NCBI RefSeq assembly: GCF_026151205.1
Contig: NC_087077.1
Coordinates: 18,026,475 to 18,090,474, forward strand
Source: Bolinopsis microptera
Lineage: Eukaryota; Ctenophora; Tentaculata; Lobata; Bolinopsidae
Reading direction: 5' to 3'
DNA: 64,000 nt
Positions 5,587 through 49,968 of the stretch are shown here, in pieces. How positions within the stretch are numbered: the stretch's first letter is position 1; every line of letters begins with the position of its first letter. A program made the translations under genes and the position numbers. The notes under the pieces are model-generated. The model was not told where the DNA came from and did no database searches. It was given only the letters and a program-made list of their open reading frames with translations.

Positions 5587-5794
5587 CTCATAAAGGTAAA
5601 GGTGAAATTTACTTAATTACTGTAGATAAGTCACGGTACTTTCTACACACAGGACTGAAAGTCTTCGTTAGAAGTATCTGACTAGGTCACGTTATTATTA
5701 TCATATTTTGTATTAATAGTAAGTCTATACTCTCTTAAATATATCATAATATAACTATAATACTAACGAATATAATACATTATCTCATAGTTCT

Positions 5795-6976
5795 ATGAAC
5801 GAATCTCAGCGTTGCAACAAATGTTATACACGTATTCCTAAAGCACGTTCGTTCCTAATTTGCAGTCACTGCGACAAAATAAAACATATGAAATGCATGA
5901 AGTTATCTAAGTCTGAGGCAAAAATAATTGTAGATTCTGGCTCTGCCTGGATATGTTATGACTGTATTTCCAGCGCCTTACCAGTAAATGCATGCCCCTC
6001 GGCAAAGCCACCGAGACAAGGGCCCGTCATAGGTCCTAAATTTAAAGTTCAATGCACATGCTGTAATGGCTGGATTTACTCCCCCGCCAACCTGAAAACC
6101 TGCCACTGGTGCGAATCTAAAGTACATACCAAATGTCACTCCGACTTATTAGGATGCAGAAATTGCTGTGAAAATATGATCCCGGGATACTATGTACATT
6201 GCTATCAGCTATACTCATTACATACACATACTCACACCGGCGTAATCCACAATCCCTACGATCGCTATCAGTTGATTAACGAAATAGGAAATACAATTGA
6301 CCAAGATCAGGAACTCGAATATTGGAATGAGATTTCTGATATTTTAGTTAGCTGCAATTACATGGAGCCGACAAATGTAAGTTCGTCAGGACCATGTGAT
6401 CTTAAGATATTTACCTTAAACATACGGGGACTTCTTAAAAACGTAGACAAATTAAGAGAAGATATATTCACGTACTCGAAGTATGATGTCCTTTGTTTTA
6501 ACGAGACTAATCTCTTGCAGGATAAGCTTCCTAATGGTATTAATGACCTAGTGCTTGAGGGATTTTATGAACCACTGTTACGAGATCCAATACGTAGTTC
6601 TGGTCGTGGTGGGGGTTTAGCAATTTATATCAATACGCGCGTATGCGAGTCTGAAAATATTGAAAAATTCTTTCCCCAAAACTTTGATGTGACAGACAAG
6701 AGTGGTGAATTCATGTTGGTAAAACTCCATAACTGCAAAGGCTTTAACAAAACAAAGATAATCGTCAATATATATCGGTCACCAGCATCAAAAAATCCTG
6801 ATAATTTTAACAAACTCATTGACTCCCTATTACACGGCATGGAAAGGCACTCGAGAAAACATACTATATTAGTCGGTGATTTCAATGTAGATCTTACACA
6901 TTATGAAGGCCTCCCCCAGCCTCGGATCTTAGGATTAGATTTGCAAAAATTCCTGAGACACAGGTGCAAAAGTTAA
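5795..6976 (+). CDS. LINE polyprotein, N-terminal part: PHD-like zinc fingers and start of endonuclease
   Basis: The frame opens at ATG 5795. Residues 7-57 form a C4HC3 PHD-like finger (C7, C10, C23, C26, H31, C34, C54, C57). A second Cys/His cluster follows at roughly residues 86-125. From about residue 205 an exonuclease/endonuclease/phosphatase domain begins, with the motifs LNIRGL, FNETN, GGGLAIYIN, IYRSP and GDFNVD (6875-6892). Such endonucleases nick target DNA to prime reverse transcription. LINE sequence ends at 6906; the last 23 codons up to the stop at 6974-6976 come from the foldback element, so the protein is truncated within the endonuclease. The other half is at 13555-16102. No internal stop or frameshift is seen before the insertion, which suggests the LINE copy was young when it was hit. 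Confidence 0.92.
   Translation: MNESQRCNKCYTRIPKARSFLICSHCDKIKHMKCMKLSKSEAKIIVDSGSAWICYDCISSALPVNACPSAKPPRQGPVIGPKFKVQCTCCNGWIYSPANLKTCHWCESKVHTKCHSDLLGCRNCCENMIPGYYVHCYQLYSLHTHTHTGVIHNPYDRYQLINEIGNTIDQDQELEYWNEISDILVSCNYMEPTNVSSSGPCDLKIFTLNIRGLLKNVDKLREDIFTYSKYDVLCFNETNLLQDKLPNGINDLVLEGFYEPLLRDPIRSSGRGGGLAIYINTRVCESENIEKFFPQNFDVTDKSGEFMLVKLHNCKGFNKTKIIVNIYRSPASKNPDNFNKLIDSLLHGMERHSRKHTILVGDFNVDLTHYEGLPQPRILGLDLQKFLRHRCKS
6901..6906. other. target-site duplication TTATGA, left copy
   Basis: TTATGA directly precedes the left end of the foldback element (AGGCCTCCCCCAGCC) and recurs directly after its right end at 13549-13554. The 6,648-bp insert-plus-duplication is a multiple of three and the LINE frame continues across it. 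Confidence 0.9.
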
Positions 6977-9036: not shown

Positions 9037-9247
9037 CTTGCGTCAAGGCGTAACAGATTTGCTGGGCACTGCATGAGAGCTTCTGACCAAGTTATCTCCT
9101 CTATCCTCCCCTGGCGACTTACCCAGTCCGGCCGTGGAACTGTGGAAGGAGACCACTCACCTTCCTGGACGTAGTAGCTCGTGACACTGGGCTCCAGTTG
9201 GACGACCTTCGAACTGTTATGTGCGATCAAGACGTGTGGAGGCAGAC
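9037..9247 (+). pseudogene. decayed C-terminal tail of a LINE reverse transcriptase
   Basis: One frame reads RNRFAGHCMRASDQVISSIL and, after a frame change near 9150, another reads DVVARDTGLQLDDLRTVMCD followed by DVWR. This matches the FAGH...DTGL..DL...M.DR..WR tail found after the thumb of many animal LINE polyproteins. Both parts are in order and of the expected spacing, but the frame is broken and the catalytic domain is missing, so only the 3' coding end remains. It belongs to a different LINE family from the one at 5.6-16.7 kb. It lies directly before the TCC tract; 5'-truncated LINEs often end in simple repeats, so the tract may have grown from that LINE's tail. Confidence 0.72.
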
Positions 9248-11885
9248 AGTCCTCCTCCTCCTCTTCCTTTGTCCTCATCCTCCTCCTTCCTCCTCCCTCC
9301 TCCTCAGTCCTCCTCAGTCCTCCTCCTCCTCCTTTTTCTCCTCCTCCTTATATCCTCCTGCTCCTTCTCAGTCCTCCTCCTCCTCCTCAGTCCTCCTCCT
9401 CCTCATCATCATCAGTCCTCCTCCTGATCCTCCTCCTTATCAGTCCTCCTCTTGATCCTCCTCTTAGTCCTCCTCCTCCTCTTTCCTCAGTCTTCCTCCT
9501 CTTCAGTCCTCCTCCTCATCCTCCTCCTCCTCCTCTTCCTCATAATCGTCCTCTTCAGTCTTCATCGTCCTCCTCGTCCTCATCAGTCCTCGTCCTCCTC
9601 ATCCTCCTCCTCCTCCTCCTCAGTCCTCCTCCTCAGTCCTCCTCAGTCCTCAGTCCTCCTCCTCCTGATCCTCCTGATCCTCCTCCTCCTCCTCCTCCTC
9701 CAGATCCTCCTCCTCCTCCTCCTCCTCAGTCCTCTTCCTCAGTCCTTCTCCTTATTCTCCTCCTCCTCCTCATCATCAGTCCTCCTCCTCCTCCTTCAAG
9801 TAGGGCGGACCAAAACGGACAAAAAATGGAAATAACATTTAGATGCTTCCTCCTCCCTCAGTCCTCCTCCTCCTCATCCTCCGCCTTCCTCCTCATCAGT
9901 CCTCCTCCTCAGTCCTCCTCCTCCTCCTCTTCCTCATAATCGTCCTCTTCAGTCTTCATCGTCCTCCTCGGCCTCATCAGTCCTCGTCCTCCTCATCCTC
10001 CTCCTCCTCCTCCTCAGTCCTCCTCCTCAGTCCTCCTCAGTCCTCAGTCCTCCTCCTCCTGATCCTCCTGATCCTCCTCCTCCTCCTCCTCCTCCAGATC
10101 CTCCTCCTCCTCCTCCTCCTCAGTCCTCTTCCTCAGTCCTTCTCCTTATTCTCCTCCTCCTCCTCATCATCAGTCCTCCTCCTCCTCCTTCAAGTAGGGC
10201 GGACCAAAACGGACAAAAAATGGAAATAACATTTAGATGCTTCTTCCTCCTCCTCCCTCTCCACCTCCTCCTTTTCTTCCTCCTCCTCCTTCTCCTCTTC
10301 AGTCCTCCTCCTCCTCCTCTTCCTGAGTCCTCCTCCTCCTTCTCCTTGCTCCTCCTCAGTCCTCCTCCTCAGTCTTCCTCAGTCCTCAGTCCTCCTCCTC
10401 CTGATCCTCCTCCTCCTCCTCCTGATCCTCCTCCTCCTCCTCCTCCTCAGTCCTCCTCCTCAGTCCTCATCCTTATTCTCCTCCTCCTCCTCATCATCAG
10501 TCCTCCTCCTTCAAGTAGGGCGGACCAAAACGGACAAAAAATGGAAATAACATTTAGATGCTTCCTCCTCCTCCCTCTACTCCTCCACCTCCTCAGTCCT
10601 CCGCAGTCCTCTTCCTCCTCCTCCTCCTTCCTCCTCACCAGTCCTCCTTCTCAGTCCTCCTCGACCTCAGTCCTCGTCCTCCTCATCCTCATCCTCAGTC
10701 CTTATCCTCCTCGTCCTCCTCGGTCCTCCTCAGTCCTCCTCCTCCTCCTCGTACATCTCATCAGTCCTCCTCCTAGCCTCCTCCTCATCAGTCCTCCTCA
10801 TCAGTCCTCCTCCTCAGTCCTCTTTAGTTCACTCAGTCCTCCTCCTCCCCTTCCTCACAGTCCTCCTCCTCAGTCCTCCTCCTCCTCGTCCTCAGTCCTC
10901 GTCCTCCTCATCCTCCTCCTCCTCAGTCCTCCTCCTCCTCAGTCCTCCTCCTCCTCCTGATCCTCCTCCTCCTCCTTCTCCTCCTCCTCCTCAGTCCTCC
11001 TCAGTTCACTCAGTCCTCCTCCTCCCTTTCCTCTCAGTCCTCCTCAACAGTCCCCCTTCTCAGTCCTCCTCCTCGTCCTCCTCGTCCTCAGTCCTTGTCC
11101 TCATCATCCTCCTCCTCGTCCTCAGTCGTCCTCAGTCCTCCTCGTCCTCAGTCCTCGTCCTCCTCAGTCCTCCTCAGTCCTCCTCCTCCTCCTCCTCCTC
11201 CTCAGTCCTCCTCCTCAGTCCTCCTCAGTCCTCCTCAGTTCACTCAGTCCTCCTCCTAGCCTCCTCCTCATCAGTCCTCCTCCTCAGTCCTCCTCCTCTT
11301 CCTCGTCCTCAGTCCTCGTCCTCCTCATCCTCCTCCTCCTCAGTCCTCCTCAGTCCTCCTCAGTTCACTCAGTCCTCCTCCTCTTCCCCTTCCTCTCAGT
11401 CCTCCTCAACAGTCCTCCTTCTCAGTCCTCCTCCTCGTCCTCAGTCCTCCTCGTCCTCCTCGTCCTCAGTCCTTGTCCTCCTCATCCTCGTCCTCGTCCT
11501 CCTCCTCCTCAGTCCTCCTCAGTCCTCCTCGTCCTCCTCAGTCCTCCTCCTCCTTCTCAGTCTTTCTCCTCCTCCTCCGCAGTCCTCTTCAGTCATCCTC
11601 CTTCTCTTCTTACATCTCATCAGTCCTCCTCCTCCTCCTCATCAGTCCTCCTCCTCATCATAATCAGTCCTCCTCCTCCTCCTTCAAGTAGGGCGGACAA
11701 TAACGGACAAAAATGGAAATAACATTTAGATGCTTATTCCTCCTCCTCCCTCTCCACCTCCTCCTTTTCCTCCTCCTCCTCCTCCTCCTCCTCTTCAGTC
11801 CTCCTCCTCCTCCTCCTCCTCCTCTTCCTGAGTCCTCCTCCTCCTCCTCCTTGCTCTTCATCAGTCATCCTCACCAGTGCTCCTC
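9248..11885. repeat. 2.6-kb TCC/GGA low-complexity tract with higher-order repeats
   Basis: Almost pure pyrimidine on the + strand, built of TCC, TCCTCAG and TCATCC words. A non-repetitive marker (AAGTAGGGCGGACCAAAACG) with its AACATTTAGATGCTT flank occurs near 9797, 10190, 10515 and 11683, dividing the tract into larger repeats. The first two repeats (about 9440-9845 and 9846-10240) are near identical. All Ser/Pro/Leu-rich open frames here are by-products of the repeat. The purine strand is GGA-rich and could form quadruplex or triplex structures. Confidence 0.95.
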
Positions 11886-13078: not shown

Positions 13079-13500
13079 TAAAGATTTTTCGCTGTCTTAG
13101 GTTTTCTTAAATTTTGTCTCAGGATTTTTCGCTGTCTCAGGTTTTCTTAAATTTTGTCTCAGGATTATTCGCTGTCTCGGGATTTCTTAAATTTTGTCTC
13201 AGGTTTTTTCGCGCGTCTCAGGATTCTTAAATTTTGTCTTAGGTTTTTTCGCTGTCTCGGGATTTCTTAAATTTTGTCTCAGGATTTTTCGCTGTCTCAG
13301 GATTTCTTAAATTTTGTCTTAGGATTTTTCGCTGTCTTGGGTTTCCTTAAATTTTGTCTCAGGATTTTCCGCTGTCTTAGGTTTCCTTAAATTTTGTCTT
13401 AAGAATTTTCGCTGTCTTAGCTTATTTTGACATCTCAGGTTCGCTTAAATTTTGTCTCAGCTTTTTTTGCTGTCTTAGCTTTTCTTAAGCAGTTTGTCTT
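13079..13500. repeat. about 40-bp tandem array in right foldback arm
   Basis: About ten units built on TTCGCTGTCTCAGG and TTAAATTTTGTCTCAGG, inverse to the left-arm array at 6958-7335. It extends almost to the element end. Confidence 0.93.
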
Positions 13501-13548
13501 AGGAATTTTTGCAAATCCAATCCTAAGATCCGAGGCTGGGGGAGGCCT

Positions 13549-13554
13549 TTATGA
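13549..13554. other. target-site duplication TTATGA, right copy
   Basis: Second copy of the hexamer at 6901-6906, immediately after the inverted-repeat end. The LINE frame resumes here. Confidence 0.9.
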
Positions 13555-16102
13555 TACTGACAAACATTGTCAAAATTTGATTGAAACTATGACTAAATAC
13601 GGTTTCTTTCAGCTAGTCTCACGTCCCACACGTATCACTGATCACAGTGCCACTCTTATAGATCATGTTTACAGCAATAACGTACAACACACACACAGCT
13701 GCAATGTTCTTACTGTTGACCTGTCTGATCATCTAGCCACTCTTGTTACTATCTCACTTGGGCAATACAGCCACATTGCAGGGAGTAGAAACAAACGACA
13801 CAGAGTCGACCATGGAATGAATATTGAAAAACGTATGTTTAACGAGTCGAACAACCTTAAATTTATAGAATTAATTGGATCCGAAATGTGGGAGGAAGTC
13901 ACACGTGAAAATTGTGCTGATGAACAATATAACAAATTTATTGAAATATACGGTCAGCATTATGATGAGGCATACCCAGTGAAAACCAATCATGTGCGCC
14001 GCAAATTTGAAAGGCAGGACCCCAAACCTTTTATGCTACCCTGGCTTGAAATTGCCTGTGCTCGTAAAAACAAATTATTCCATGCCAAAATAGTGGACCC
14101 AACGGAGGAAAACTACAAGGCTTACAAAAAGCATAAGGCATTCTGCGACAAGCACGTCAATAAGGCAAAAGACAAATACTACAAAACACAATTTGATAAG
14201 TATAAAGATTGTTCAAAGAAACAATGGCAGCTGATCAACACTCTACTTGGCAGAAGATCTAAATCTCATAACAAAATTAAACTCCAAAACGCCGACGGAA
14301 ATATCATAAATAGTGACAGTGATGTAGCTGAGCACTTTAACTCTTACTTCTCCAACATTGCCACAAAAATCAAAGATGCGATCAGCGCGCGTACTGTATT
14401 CGATCCAGGGGGTTTTAAACATTACCTTAGCAGCCCAGCTTCGCAGTCTATGTTCGTAAGACCAACTACCGAAAGTGAAGTTGAACAAATTATTAGCAAG
14501 CTTAAGAATAAATCCACTCAAGACACTAAAATTGAACCCCTAAAAATTGTAAAAGACTGCCCCTCCTTCTGTAAAGTCTTGTCCATAATCATTAACACAT
14601 CATTTAGTCAAGGTATCTTCCCATCATCTCTCAAAATAGCTAAAGTTATACCAATTCACAAAGGAGGCAGCAAATCCGACGCCACTAACTATCGACCCAT
14701 ATCTTTGCTGTGCACCTTTTCCAAATTGTATGAAAAACTTATGCATAATAGAGTAATGGACTTCCTTGACAAGAAAGGCTCGCTCTTTGAAGGGCAATAT
14801 GGCTTCCGGCCAGGCCGATCCTGTGAGCATGCTCTTTTGGATGCTCAACACACGATTCTGAATTCCCTTGCCAAAAAGGAAGTTGCTCTATTACTCCAAG
14901 TCGACTTTAGTAAAGCTTTTGACGTTTTGTCTCATGATGTATTGATTGACAAACTCCAGCACTATGGAATCCGTGGGCAAGCTTTGCAATGGTTTCAATC
15001 CTACCTGAGCACACGTCAGCAATACGTATGTTTGAATGGTATTAAATCAGCTCTTAAACCTATTACATACGGAGTTCCACAGGGCAGTATTATGGGACCT
15101 TTGTTATTCCTAATCTACATCAATGATATGCCAAATATCAACAGTATGATAAAGTTTATACTCTACGCTGATGATGCGAACATCATAATAAAAGGCAAAA
15201 ATGCAAACGATGTTATACAAAAATTCAACCAATTCTCCCACGAGTTTGTACGCTGGGTTGACTGTAATGGACTTGCACTTAATCTAAAAAAGACCTGCTA
15301 TATGCTTTTCGGTGTTAGAAATACTGATAATACTCCAAATATTCATATTGCAGACACACAATTAGAACGTAAAAGGGAAGCACGGTTCCTTGGCGTTATA
15401 ATGGATGATAAACTAACATGGTCTAAGCATATAGCAGCTGTTAGATCAAAAATGATGCGGTATGTAGGAATTATGTATAAAATAAAACGTTACCTATCGA
15501 TTCAAATAAGGCTACAGATATATCAAAGTTTTGTTCAATCGCATTTAAACTTCTGTTCAATTGTATGGGGGTTTGCAGCAAAAAATCACATTGAATCACT
15601 CTTCTCACGACAAAAACAGGGTATCAGGGCAGTAATGCCAGGTCACATTAATTACTTTTACAAAGACGGTCGACTGCCAGAACACACAAAACAATTTTTC
15701 AATAACAATGGTATACTCACGGTGCACAGTGTTATTGTAAAAAACACACTAATTCTCATGCACCGAATCAAACATTTCCGCAGCTCAGTCCCTCAACAAA
15801 TCTGTATGACTATCCCAGAAAATGCACCCACTGCAAACTCAGATCACGTGACTGCAGCATCCTGGTTAGCCGAGTACAACACCACACATTTCAGATCTTC
15901 GATGTTCTTCAAAGGACCTTTACTCTCAATTTATGCTGTAAATGCAAATGTAAGCACCCTACCCACACTTTTTTCCATAAACCTTTTTAAATCGGCTACA
16001 AAACGCATGCTCTTGAACCTGCAGAGTGAAAATGATGATGACACGTGGCCCAGTTTCTTATTACATAATATTCCAGGTCTAAGAAGGTCACAACGTGTTT
16101 GA
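13555..16102 (+). CDS. LINE polyprotein, C-terminal part: end of endonuclease and reverse transcriptase
   Basis: This continues the endonuclease broken at 6906: the metal-site region with SATLIDHVY and SDHLATL follows at once. A basic, lysine-rich linker leads to a reverse transcriptase with DFSKAFD (14903-14923), PQGSIMGP (15077-15100) and the catalytic YADD (15164-15175), then the thumb motif FLGVIMDDKLTW. The two catalytic aspartates of YADD and the first aspartate of DFSKAFD are present. No internal stop is found down to TGA at 16100-16102. The open frame itself extends upstream to 13427, but those 42 codons are foldback sequence. After the insertion this half has lost its own start, so the element should be unable to make a full enzyme. 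Confidence 0.93.
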
Positions 16103-46334: not shown

Positions 46335-47124
46335 TTTTATAATTGTGATCAAATGTTAAAGTTCGATTGCAAAATTAATTCGTTGGTTCTCGCGTTTTAT
46401 CCACAGTGAACTCGTCTGTGGTATTTCACAAAAATAATTCATTCGCAAAAATAGGGATGTAAATGAAACATATCTACGTATCTTATTAGCTTATTGAATT
46501 ATTGATAATATTGGATTATGATATCGGTTTATGATCATTTCGCTTTACCTTGTGTCAACAGCTTTTTTATTTGTCTAATACATTTTTTCGTATTGAATCT
46601 CCGTTATCTTTATTCTTGTAGTTTTTTTTGCGCTGCTGACATCACATGTTATGTTAGTTGTCAATTACTACACCGCATAACACACCGCTAAGTTGATATT
46701 GTTTGTTTTTTCATAATTCAAGTGTTACACTGTTAATTATATTTATAATATATATATTTTTATTCAGCCACAACTGTCAGTAAAACAACGCCTTGACTTC
46801 AAATGTCGGTAAAATGTACCTTTACAGTCATCCTCAATAAATGTATTTAATTGTAGTTGTGAAAATAGTTTAAAACTATTTAGTTATAAAATATATATTG
46901 CTTTCATCAATATATATATATTAATAAAATGATGCAAAGAACTATTTCGAAGATCTAATCAACACCGACTTTTAATGTGTAGGAGTACAGCAACAAAATA
47001 TATATATGTATATCCATAGTCACATTGTTTCGTCCTATTAGGACTCATCAGTATGGCTCAAATCATCAGGGTTGGTTTTGCCGATGGCGGGTATCGACCC
47101 AGCAACCTTGCGATTACTGGCTCG
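46335..47124. repeat. segment A, first copy, of a partial tandem duplication
   Basis: About 97% or more identical by eye to 48759-49528 over nearly 0.8 kb; the main difference is a roughly 20-bp loss in a TA-rich run near 46900. It ends inside the retrozyme-like element at GGCTCG. Contents are AT-rich non-coding sequence plus the minus-strand ribozyme at 47014-47056. Confidence 0.92.
47014..47056 (-). ncRNA. hammerhead ribozyme, cleavage triplet lost (copy 1)
   Basis: On the minus strand: stem I CCAUA/UAUGG, core CUGAUGA, stem II GUCC/GGAC with UAAUA loop, then GAAA. Where the active copy has GUC at the cleavage site this copy has GAC, so the A15.1-U16.1 pair is gone, and one stem III pair is also changed. 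It is expected to be inactive or very weak. Confidence 0.82.
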
Positions 47125-47295
47125 GCGCCACACCACTGGGCCGCCAAGCCCTTAATGATGAGGGAGTTACAGAGGTACCTCACTGCTCTACAAACTCATT
47201 ACAAGTTAGGAGCTTTGCATTTAAGCTGAGCGGTAGATCTATTCATTCCCTAGAGTGCTCAAGCTTAGAAAAATAGGCGAGCATATTTATCCATA
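47014..47295 (-). mobile_element. retrozyme-like SINE monomer (277 bp) bounded by hammerhead ribozymes
   Basis: Between the cleavage positions of the ribozymes at 47.3 and 47.0 kb lies one 277-bp unit. On the minus strand it holds an A-box-like GGCCCAGTGG (47133-47142) and a B-box-like GGGTCGATACC (47090-47100, one mismatch to GGTTCRANNCC), so Pol III transcription is plausible. A second, 5'-truncated unit continues to about 47395, where it meets a TA repeat. The layout (tandem units, one type I hammerhead each, no coding) is that of animal retrozymes and of the schistosome Sm-alpha SINE. No target duplication is resolved. Confidence 0.8.
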
Positions 47296-47333
47296 GACAC
47301 AGTGTTTCGTCCTATTAGGACTCATCAGTATGG
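47291..47333 (-). ncRNA. hammerhead ribozyme, type I, apparently intact (copy 2)
   Basis: Minus strand, 5' to 3': stem I CCAUA (47333-47329), core CUGAUGA (47328-47322), stem II GUCC-UAAUA-GGAC (47321-47309), GAA (47308-47306), stem III ACAC-U-GUGU (47305-47297), C17 (47296), then stem I UAUGG (47295-47291). The cleavage triplet is GUC and the cut falls between 47296 and 47295. All conserved core positions are present. The short stem III is typical of retrotransposon hammerheads, which often work best as dimers. Confidence 0.9.
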
Positions 47334-47395
47334 CTCAAATCATCAGGGTTGGTTTTGCCGATGGCGGGTATCGATCCAGCAACCTGCTTATATAT

Positions 47396-48324
47396 ATATA
47401 TATAATTCAAACCTGCCCAAGCTAGATAGCCATGGCTTGGGGGTACTGTTAATTATGATCAGTACAGTTTATTTTCCCGCATGATAGGGATATCAACATC
47501 AATATTAGTAGAGGAACAATACCATCACTTGGTTTGTTTAGGGTTCGGGATTCAGTCGGCCACCAGATTGATGGGACTGTCTTAGTCTCGTATATTCGTC
47601 AGAAGTACGTGGTGTCTTCACTCTTCTACAGTACTTCTCTCCATACAGCACTCAGAAGTAACTTTACAACTCTTTCACTCACCTCTAATAACTTTGTCCT
47701 TCCGCATTCCTCCGCCCTTTTTACTCATGGTCTAATTTTCCAGCTCAGAGAGCACTACACCTTTCTATTTTTTTCCTCGCTATAGCTGCTAATCAGTTAT
47801 AGGCTGTGGCCAGGCTTTGTTGTTATTGTTGTTATTATTGTTGTAGCACCCACTCTACTACAATATAGCTACGCACGAAGGAGGCGACTATTTCTAATGG
47901 GGTCCCGCCCGTTTCTCTGGTGTCGAACTTGAGTGCTAACCTCACTGTGTCGTCAGAGAGTTCTCAGAGTACAAGGACCGGGTCAGGGAGGTGCCTTTTT
48001 TGTAGAAATACTCACACCCACGCACACCCATGGTCACGTTTTGATTTACAGGGGTCTCGGGCGAAATGAATGAAATTAGCACTTGCTTGGAATGCGTCCG
48101 TTTTCAATCTACCCACTCTCTCAGCGGCGTGTCTTTACGCCATGCTCCACAGCACATCTTTTAAACTAAAATATCGGCCCAGGCCTCTGCTGTGCCTAGG
48201 CCTCTGCTTCAACTATAAGTTTTATCTGTCCACAGTATGAAATTTATTGGCTTGGCAGGTTTACTGGTTAAGTGACAAGAAATGTCGGGATAGATGCTGT
48301 CATTGACTGGCTGACGAGTTAAAT
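47396..48324. other. segment C remainder, unique non-coding sequence
   Basis: Lies between the retrozyme and segment B and is absent from the second A-B copy. Contains a TTGTTATT run at 47818-47845. No gene supported. Confidence 0.5.
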
Positions 48325-48764
48325 ATACCAAGTTAAATTAATCACGTTTAGATGGCTGAATGACGGTCAGTTTGATACTCCTGACACAGTAACAGTAAAC
48401 AGAGCTATCTCCGTCAGAAGGTTATCAAAATATAATACAAATATTATCTCCGCACCTTATTATAAACCAGCATTGCTAAAAATCCTAAAATTCCCTGTGT
48501 TCTTAGTCTTCAAAATGGGACACTTATAAGGCATAGACATTAGACATGTCACTTAAAAATCTAAATTTGTCAGTGAACCCGGTATGACAGATTAATCAGT
48601 CTGTTGCACATTATGTCACTAAAAATTCATTCCCAGTATTCCTTGTAGGATTCTTGTGTCAACTTTTGATTTTAGCCCCTCTCTCAAATTGTTGCTTTTG
48701 CTACACGTTAATATTCCTGCTTATTTTATTTATTAATTACTATATATAGTCTTGCTTTTTTATA
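48325..48764. repeat. segment B, first copy
   Basis: Near-identical to 49529-49968. Small frames in it are repeat sequence. Confidence 0.92.
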
Positions 48765-49968
48765 ATTGTGATCAAATGTTAAAGTTCGATTGCAAAATTA
48801 ATTCGTTGGTTCTCGCGTTTTATCCACAGTGAACTCGTCTGTGGTATTTCACAAAAATAATTCATTCGCAAAAATAGGGATGTAAATGAAACATATCTAC
48901 GTATCTTATTAGCTTATTGAATTATTGATAATATTGGATTATGATATCGGTTTATGATCATTTCGCTTTACCTTGTGTCAACAGCTTTTGTATTTGTCTA
49001 ATACATTTTTTCGTATTGAATCTCCGTTATCTTTATTCTTGTAGTTTTTTTTGCGCTGCTGACATCACATGTTATGTTAGTTGTCAATTACTACACCGCA
49101 TAACACACCGCTAAGTTGATATTGTTTGTTTTTTCATAATTCAAGTGTTACACTGTTAATTATATTTATAATATATATATTTTTATTCAGCCACAACTGT
49201 CAGTAAAACAACGCCTTGACTTCAAATGTCGGTAAAATGTACCTTTACAGTCATCCTCAATAAATGTATTTAATTGTAGTTGTGAAAATAGTTTAAAACT
49301 ATTTAGTTATAAAATATATATATATTAATAAAATGATGCAAAGAACTATTTCGAAGATCTAATCAACACCGACTTTTAATGTGTAGGAGTACAGCAACAA
49401 AATATATATATGTATATCCATAGTCACATTGTTTCGTCCTATTAGGACTCATCAGTATGGCTCAAATCATCAGGGTTGGTTTTGCCGATGGCGGGTATCG
49501 ACCCAGCAACCTTGCGATTACTGGCTCGATACCAAGTTAAATTAATCACGTTTAGATGGCTGAATGACGGTCAGTTTGATACTCCTGACACAGTAACAGT
49601 AAACAGAGCTATCTCCGTCAGAAGGTTATCAAAATACAATACAAATATTATCTCCGCACCTTATTATAAACCAGCATTGCTAAAAATCCTAAAATTCCCT
49701 GTGTTCTTAGTCTTCAAAATGGGACACTTATAAGGCATAGACATTAGACATGTCACTTAAAAATCTAAATTTGTCAGTGAACCCGGTATGACAGATTAAT
49801 CAGTCTGTTGCACATTATGTCTCTAAAAATTCATTCCCAGTATTCCTTGTAGGATTCTTGTGTCAACTTTTGATTTTAGCCCCTCTCTCAAATTGTTGCT
49901 TTTGCTACACGTTAATATTCCTGCTTATTTCATTTATTAATTACTATATATAGTCTTGCTTTTTTATA
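48759..49968. repeat. second A-B copy, lacking the 1.2-kb middle
   Basis: 48759-49528 repeats segment A and 49529-49968 repeats segment B, joined directly at GGCTCG|ATACCAAG. The first copy has 1.2 kb (47125-48324) between them. Simplest reading: a 2.42-kb tandem duplication followed by a deletion in the second copy. Confidence 0.88.
49418..49460 (-). ncRNA. hammerhead ribozyme, cleavage triplet lost (copy 3)
   Basis: Identical to the 47014-47056 copy, including GAC at the cleavage triplet; it arose with the segmental duplication. The retrozyme unit here is cut off at 49528, after the B box and before the A box. Confidence 0.82.

What the first reader, a model, noticed from the sequence alone, without database searches (positions are those of the whole stretch)
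47014..47395. SINE-like retrozyme with an intact hammerhead ribozyme and tRNA-type promoter boxes
Minus-strand sequence contains all conserved hammerhead parts twice, 277 bp apart, enclosing one monomer with A- and B-box-like motifs. Animal retrozymes and the schistosome Sm-alpha SINE are the known analogues. Transcription across the unit followed by self-cleavage would release a 277-nt RNA that could circularise. The coupling of a Pol III-type head and a type I ribozyme in this genome looks undescribed to me.
Basis: partly seen in the sequence, partly recalled or inferred. Interest (0 to 1): 0.9.

Follow-up and report, generated by a model that had tools for sequence, protein, structure and literature searches.

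The report
Self-cutting mobile RNA element, comb jelly
A small mobile DNA repeat, almost certainly in a comb-jelly genome, encodes an RNA that cuts itself and carries a likely built-in start signal; its insertion marks suggest that a known kind of retrotransposon copies it into TA repeats, so the kind is known but its way of moving becomes testable.

Summary
Minus strand 47335-47289 holds a type I hammerhead ribozyme (HHR) above Rfam's cut-off (35.9 bits); a truncated and a full 277-bp unit lie in tandem. The second HHR (47058-47012) is broken at U16.1 (22.2 bits, cut-off 34), so this copy should not release a 277-nt RNA. The genome fits the ctenophore Bolinopsis microptera by assembly figures. 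It holds 83 HHR sites within 3 mismatches, in arrays of 1-7 units. Copies have ragged 5' ends, a 3' end 7 nt past the ribozyme cut (43 of 49 arrays), TA-rich flanks and, in 10 of 43, target duplications of 10-14 nt: reverse transcription at a nicked target from an uncut or circular template. An A/B-box pair exists, but no tRNA fold was found. An intact Penelope-like element ends in the same TA targets and is the best candidate mobiliser; a LINE is not excluded. I file it as a new member of the metazoan non-LTR retrozymes. HHR SINEs with tRNA heads are known from schistosomes.

The parts
47296..47385 (-). 5'-truncated upstream unit, unit positions 188-277 (B box kept, A box missing)
   Evidence: blastn of the monomer
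47289..47335 (-). HHR1, type I hammerhead, intact; cut expected between 47296 and 47295
   Evidence: Rfam RF00163, 35.9 bits
47019..47295 (-). full 277-nt unit, cut site to cut site
   Evidence: 93.9% identical to the consensus of 25 units
47269..47273 (-). TTTTT run, possible Pol III stop; absent from the consensus, and 2 of 25 full units have any run of 4 or more T
47133..47143 (-). A-box-like motif, 1 mismatch
47090..47100 (-). B-box-like motif, 1 mismatch
47012..47058 (-). HHR2, broken (U16.1 to A); its last 7 nt, TATGGAT at 47018-47012, are the usual 3' end of the element
   Evidence: 22.2 bits, below the cut-off; 3' ends
47386..47406 (.). TA-rich 5' flank (target)
46927..47010 (+). 3' end of a Penelope-like element, opposite orientation, joined tail to tail with the retrozyme through TA repeats (79% identical)
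   Evidence: blastn
49416..49528 (-). second fragment (unit positions 172-277 plus TATGGAT), same broken HHR; lies in a local duplication

Best explanation
It is a broken copy of a small non-autonomous retroelement: a metazoan non-LTR retrozyme of about 277 nt with a SINE-like head. Proposed cycle: (1) in arrays of two or more units Pol III starts some 11-18 nt upstream of the A box and reads through units, whose consensus has no T4 stop (inferred). (2) Each hammerhead cuts and frees 277-nt monomers (inferred from intact ribozymes). (3) A host RNA ligase closes them into circles (inferred from other animals, PMC7229834). (4) The GIY-YIG nuclease of a Penelope-like element nicks a TA repeat and its reverse transcriptase starts at an inner site of the RNA, 7 nt past the cut, running part of a turn, one turn or several. 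Shown: fixed 3' end, ragged 5' ends, whole-unit periodicity, TA-rich targets, target duplications. Inferred: the enzyme, the polymerase, the circle. Since copies cross the cut site, the template was continuous there: a circle or an uncut multimer, not the cut linear monomer.
For: HHR at Rfam level; 69 HHR matches (74 of 35411 candidates scored) and 83 pattern sites, 60 exact, none for the reversed control. Nine loci carry two or more exact ribozymes in one array. 55 arrays of 1-7 units; 43 of 49 arrays end in TATGG[AG]T right after the cut site. TA-rich flanks: 36 of 55 (5') and 39 of 55 (3') above the 95th percentile of random 30-mers. Target duplications of 10 nt or more, not pure TA: 10 of 43; permuted pairs 2.7 +/- 1.5, none of 500 reach 10. 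HHR diverges less than the rest. Circular consensus folds at -89.7 kcal/mol against -66.6 +/- 4.9 in 200 shuffles. Box pair, 0 of 5000 shuffles; L037 and L029 have GGTTCGATTCC, L049 and L028 TGGCTCAGTGG. PLE: 1013-codon open frame with GIY-YIG; 99.3% identical second copy, truncated-plus-full tandem; 8 of 9 PLE 3' ends run into TA repeats, 1 into the next tandem copy; a PLE tail beside the retrozyme in L102 and not in its duplicates L100, L105.
Against: No tRNA fold. The head is the most variable part, 8.1% against 2.95%; boxes vary 7.8 and 7.5% against 3.5% in the body. 5' ends at the expected Pol III start are only weakly enriched (5 of 49, P 0.03 against a jittered null) and another stretch is enriched as well (8 of 49, P 0.01). 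No HHR found in the PLE. PLE near the arrays, 10 of 110 flank segments against 1 of 40 random ones, is not clearly more than random. The minimum-energy folds do not show the native ribozyme; forcing it in the circle costs 3 kcal/mol. 6 of 49 arrays lack the usual 3' end. No RNA data.
Confidence: 0.55

Rival explanations
1. Same retrozyme, but transcribed by Pol II read-through from neighbouring promoters; the boxes are a relic and inactive.
For: No tRNA fold; the head is the most variable part; the window's upstream unit has no A box.
Against: The box pair is far better than shuffles; the A-box consensus has no mismatch, and within the head the boxes vary less (7.8 and 7.5%) than the stretch between them (11.1%).
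Confidence: 0.4
2. Same retrozyme, moved by a LINE as ordinary SINEs are.
For: SINE-like head and 10-14-nt target duplications; LINE-type RT and endonuclease frames lie in the window. PMC4918200 reports 15-bp duplications around Nematostella repeats, likened to LINE insertions (passages).
Against: TA-repeat targets shared with a PLE; truncated-plus-full tandem arrays as in the PLE. LINE 3' ends were not examined, so the test is incomplete.
Confidence: 0.25
3. The template is an uncut multimeric transcript, never a circle; the ribozyme limits or trims the RNA and is not needed for the copying.
For: Copies cross the cut site, which an uncut multimer explains as well. For an Anolis PLE, HHR mutants did not affect insertion in vitro (PMC11167929, part 2 read).
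Against: The HHR diverges less than the rest; other animal retrozymes accumulate as circles (PMC7229834).
Confidence: 0.35
4. A tandem satellite spread by unequal exchange and segmental duplication, with no current or recent retrotransposition.
For: Several loci share flanks (L009/L010, L035/L036, L037/L039, L012/L023, pairs in L033 and L041; window pair; L100/L102/L105). Units are more alike within arrays, 0.969, than between, 0.930.
Against: 49 arrays after removing such pairs, with ragged 5' ends and one 3' end in 43; target duplications beyond permutation.
Confidence: 0.05

Closest known systems
Metazoan non-LTR retrozymes (Cervera and de la Pena 2020, PMC7229834)
   Same: Type I HHR in tandem repeats of some hundred bp, no LTR, target duplications longer than 4 bp, stable fold of the monomer
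   Different: Here an A/B-box pair (the paper's main text has no mention of Pol III or SINE), a 3' end defined to the base beside the HHR, TA-repeat targets, a ctenophore host, and a small family
Sm-alpha and Sj-alpha SINE-like elements of schistosomes
   Same: tRNA-related head together with an active-type HHR in a SINE-like repeat (passages)
   Different: Schistosome copies are scored as tRNA-Gln genes or pseudogenes, this head is not recognised as tRNA; HHR copy numbers >38,000 and >5,000 there, 83 sites here. I compared no schistosome sequence directly
Penelope-like elements (Poseidon of Anolis, PMC11167929)
   Same: AT-rich targets, start of reverse transcription inside the RNA beyond the HHR cut, truncated-plus-full tandem arrays
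   Different: The retrozyme codes for no protein; the PLE family of this genome that shares its targets has no HHR found by Rfam

Membership tests
Metazoan non-LTR retrozyme | canonical type I HHR | tested here: met
   Rfam 35.9 bits; 83 sites in the genome. Loop-loop contacts not tested
Metazoan non-LTR retrozyme | tandem units of about 150-450 bp, dimers to multimers | tested here: met
   277-bp units, arrays of 1-7; many arrays are single truncated units
Metazoan non-LTR retrozyme | low GC, below 50% (text) or 45% (figure legend) | tested here: inconclusive
   consensus 46.2%: meets the first figure, not the second
Metazoan non-LTR retrozyme | target duplications longer than 4 bp | tested here: met
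   10 of 43 arrays with 10-14 nt, none of 500 permutations
Metazoan non-LTR retrozyme | no LTR, PBS or PPT | not tested
   none seen on reading the units, but no PBS or PPT search was run
Metazoan non-LTR retrozyme | self-cleavage and circular RNA in the animal | not testable with these tools
   no RNA data or bench
tRNA-derived SINE | internal A and B boxes at tRNA-like distance | tested here: met
   consensus 0 and 1 mismatch, 43 nt start to start
tRNA-derived SINE | head recognisable as tRNA | tested here: not met
   no tRNA match by Rfam at E up to 5 (9 loci) or 10 (5 loci), none by ARAGORN (11 loci)
tRNA-derived SINE | insertion by target-primed reverse transcription: fixed 3' end, ragged 5' end, target duplication | tested here: met
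tRNA-derived SINE | 3' end shared with a LINE of the genome | not tested
   LINE 3' ends were not collected
Penelope-like element as mobiliser | intact RT plus GIY-YIG frame in the same genome | tested here: met
   L059 and L060, 1013 codons; Pfam hits GIY-YIG only, the RT part is named from recalled motifs
Penelope-like element as mobiliser | same target as the retrozyme | tested here: met
   TA repeats at 8 of 9 PLE 3' ends (8 of these copies are the best-matching ones of the search, not a random sample)
Penelope-like element as mobiliser | HHR in its own repeat, as in many PLEs | tested here: not met
   none at E up to 5 in L059 and L060

The most novel reading that the evidence does not exclude
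An animal retrozyme with a Pol III promoter whose ribozyme-made circle is the template of a Penelope-like reverse transcriptase. The start of reverse transcription sits at the open end of the ribozyme's helix I, so that a copy, however short, keeps the 3' part of a whole ribozyme. It would be the first such element described from ctenophores and would name the mobiliser of animal retrozymes from genomic evidence.
Probability: 0.35. Interest if true: 0.75.

Novelty: new member of a known kind. Interest (0 to 1): 0.5.

Why it matters
Which enzyme moves animal retrozymes is open: PMC7229834 names PLEs only as a strong candidate, from shared ribozymes, tandem copies and co-existence. Here the insertion ends say more: the template crosses the cut site, reverse transcription starts at a fixed place beside the ribozyme, and the TA targets are shared with a PLE family whose copies are nearly identical. 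The family is small, so retrozyme and PLE can be tested together in vitro. [quoted passage not shown]

Tried and rejected
Species: COX1 gave no match. A glutamate-receptor frame against PDB gave distant animal receptors, nothing decisive. The assembly figures gave the answer, except that the scaffold number differs (346 in the paper, 232 held).

HHR in the PLE: none by Rfam in L059, L060 and L057, nothing convincing by a loose core pattern. PLEs with an N-terminal GIY-YIG (L057, L061) were considered; the places near their frames' beginnings that I read (L057, L058, L061) show no clear TA repeat, and I did not collect their 3' ends.

A head-only SINE elsewhere: none seen; the 40 matches listed lie in retrozyme arrays (40 of 61 candidates scored).

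Covariation in the head hairpin: 1 of 15 pairs with a double change, not enough to claim selection on the fold.

A contig of the viral collection with the same 26-nt ribozyme core (L097) shares nothing else with the consensus unit or the PLE: treated as chance or convergence.

L100, L102, L105 looked like a chimeric new element; they share both flanks and are duplicates of one insertion.

Limits of my own counts. The full units were cut out by a ribozyme-like pattern at both ends, which favours conserved ribozymes (92 blast matches) gives the same direction, 1.5% in the HHR against 3.5% in positions 9-139, but most loci were found through the HHR or the monomer. The later loci were picked by a pattern that includes TATGGAT, so only what follows it is a fresh test, and three of them are one insertion. 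Six arrays sharing flanks were dropped before the counts of 49 and 43; the window pair and the two halves of L007 were left in. Two of the ten target duplications (L023, L028) lie 24 and 28 nt from the element's 5' end.

Full report
The observation. Rfam finds one RNA in the 64-kb window at gathering level, a type I hammerhead on the minus strand at 47335-47289. The 103-nt repeat with 277-bp spacing is there. The second copy, 47058-47012, scores 22.2 bits and has lost the U of the cleavage triplet, so the statement that all conserved parts occur twice fails in one decisive base. The upstream unit begins at unit position 188, after the A box. The full unit has a TTTTT run at unit position 23. 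A transcript from this locus's only complete box pair would meet only the broken ribozyme. A second fragment at 49528-49416 has the same broken ribozyme and lies in a local duplication, 46335-47124 against 48758-49528, 97.5% identical over 790 bp.

The genome. The held genome has 264.65 Mb in 232 contigs; the largest is 26,206,493 bases and the N50, computed from the thirteen large contigs and the total, is 20,825,282. Table 1 of PMC11797021 (passages seen) gives for Bolinopsis microptera 265 Mb, 13 chromosomes, largest 26.2 Mb, N50 20.8 Mb, 346 scaffolds. I take the host to be this ctenophore; it is an inference from assembly figures. COX1 and a glutamate receptor did not help.

The family. 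The Rfam model gives 69 matches with 74 of 35411 candidates scored, a lower bound. The window monomer gives 76 blast matches. A 38-nt ribozyme pattern gives 83 sites within 3 mismatches, 60 of them exact, none for the reversed control; nine loci hold two or more exact sites in one array. I fetched 48 regions, which with the window hold 55 arrays of 1-7 units, and later looked at 11 more loci (one already inside L062, ten). A majority consensus of 25 full units from 14 loci is 277 nt long, GC 46.2%.

Insertion anatomy. The 3' end is nearly always the same: GTGTC, the cut, TATGGAT, then mostly TA-rich DNA. Of 49 arrays, after dropping six that share flanks with another, 43 have TATGG[AG]T there. 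Of the 11 later loci 10 have TATGGAT, but the search pattern contained it. The 5' ends scatter from position 1 to 252. The share of TA/AT steps in the adjoining 30 bases exceeds the 95th percentile of 30-mers from 20 random regions in 36 of 55 5' flanks and 39 of 55 3' flanks, and in 6 and 8 of the 11 later loci. Right after TATGGAT, 10 of 43 arrays repeat 10 nt or more of their 5' flank in a form that is not pure TA, such as 14 nt in L008 and L006 and 13 nt in L016 and L040; permuted pairs give 2.7 +/- 1.5, and none of 500 permutations reaches 10. Two of the ten (L023, L028) lie more than 20 nt from the element. L085 shows an unfilled TA stretch in a host repeat that L040 has filled.

The template. 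A cut linear monomer ends at the cut site, so copies made from its end would lack TATGGAT. They have it, so the template was continuous across the cut: a circle, or an uncut multimer. Arrays begin anywhere in the unit and end at one place, as expected if reverse transcription starts at one inner site and runs for part of a turn or several turns. The genome alone does not separate circle from multimer.

Ribozyme, fold, promoter. In full units the ribozyme diverges 0.8% from consensus against 2.95% in the rest, lower in 12 loci and higher in 1 of 14; the units were chosen by a ribozyme-like pattern, which favours this. In 92 blast matches it is 1.5% against 3.5% in the body. The consensus circle folds at -89.7 kcal/mol against -66.6 +/- 4.9 in 200 dinucleotide shuffles; the minimum-energy fold is not the native ribozyme, which costs 3 kcal/mol more. 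The consensus has TGGCCCAGTGG (0 mismatches to TGGCNNAGTGG) and 43 nt on GGATCGATACC (1 mismatch to GGTTCGANNCC); both patterns are recalled. No other pair with up to 3 mismatches exists in the window, and 0 of 5000 shuffles reach the consensus score. L037 and L029 have GGTTCGATTCC, L049 and L028 TGGCTCAGTGG. Against this: no tRNA match by Rfam or ARAGORN; the head is the most variable part, 8.1%, with CpG sites at 13%; the 5' ends at 135-142, where a Pol III start is expected from recalled tRNA gene anatomy, number 5 of 49 (P 0.03 against a jittered null), and 172-181 is enriched too, 8 of 49, P 0.01. I had seen the 5' ends before choosing these stretches.

The likely mobiliser. GIY-YIG gives 147 matches, with 150 of 525 candidates scored. 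L059 has an open frame of 1013 codons with GIY-YIG near its C-terminus; L060 has a copy 99.3% identical over 3505 bp, preceded by a truncated one, the same truncated-plus-full arrangement as in the retrozyme. Pfam does not hit the RT part at E 0.01; I call it a PLE from recalled motifs. In 9 copies the 3' end is CCATGAAATATATATA, running into TA repeats in 8 and into the next tandem copy in 1. PLE sequence lies within 700 bp of 10 of 55 arrays, that is in 10 of 110 flank segments against 1 of 40 random segments, which is not clearly more than random. What stands out is the joint: in 8 of the 10 it begins within about 75 bp of the retrozyme's 3' end, though the window pair and L035/L036 are duplicates and L032 and L033 share both break points, so the independent cases are about five. 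In L102, compared with its duplicates L100 and L105, a PLE tail sits in the TA stretch beside the retrozyme. No HHR was found in this PLE. PMC11167929 (main text parts 1 and 2 of 4 read) reports that an Anolis PLE prefers AT-rich DNA and starts reverse transcription inside its RNA, beyond the HHR cut; this fits the ends seen here. It also found that HHR mutants did not affect insertion in vitro, which leaves the uncut multimer open. A LINE was not excluded.

Known or new. PMC7229834 (parts 1-4 of 6 read) describes metazoan non-LTR retrozymes in cnidarians, molluscs, amphibians and other phyla; its main text does not mention polymerase III or SINE. HHRs in tRNA-related SINE-like elements are known from schistosomes (passages). 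No held paper has both 'ctenophore' and 'hammerhead ribozyme'; with looser terms six papers came up, of which only PMC10886601 has both words, in unrelated places. Supplements could not be read and most subscription papers are not held, so absence from print is not shown. I file it as a new member of the retrozymes. It works like a SINE; it is not filed as a tRNA-derived SINE, since the tRNA fold was tested and not found.

Noticed in passing
window 46335-47124 and 48758-49528: Local duplication, 97.5% identical, carrying the broken ribozyme and a reversed PLE tail.
   Followed up: partly
window 5750-6976 and 13421-16102: LINE-type frames: PHD finger plus endonuclease, and endonuclease plus reverse transcriptase (RVT_1 122.6 bits).
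   Followed up: partly
window 9178-11722: Overlapping open frames of Ser/Pro/Leu-rich low-complexity repeats; probably not genes.
   Followed up: no
L057 and L061: Open frames with GIY-YIG near the N-terminus, as recalled for permuted Penelope-like elements; a second PLE kind in this genome.
   Followed up: partly
L007, 1107-4079: About 3-kb insert with inverted terminal repeats inside a retrozyme array, probably a DNA transposon.
   Followed up: no
L032 and L033: Retrozyme arrays starting at the same unit position (199) and joined through TA repeats to PLE sequence at the same PLE position, while the PLE parts differ in age (90.6 and 98.8% to L059): a moved composite or repeated use of one break point.
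   Followed up: no
L097, 7214-7239: Contig of the viral collection with 26 identical nt of the ribozyme core and nothing else in common.
   Followed up: partly
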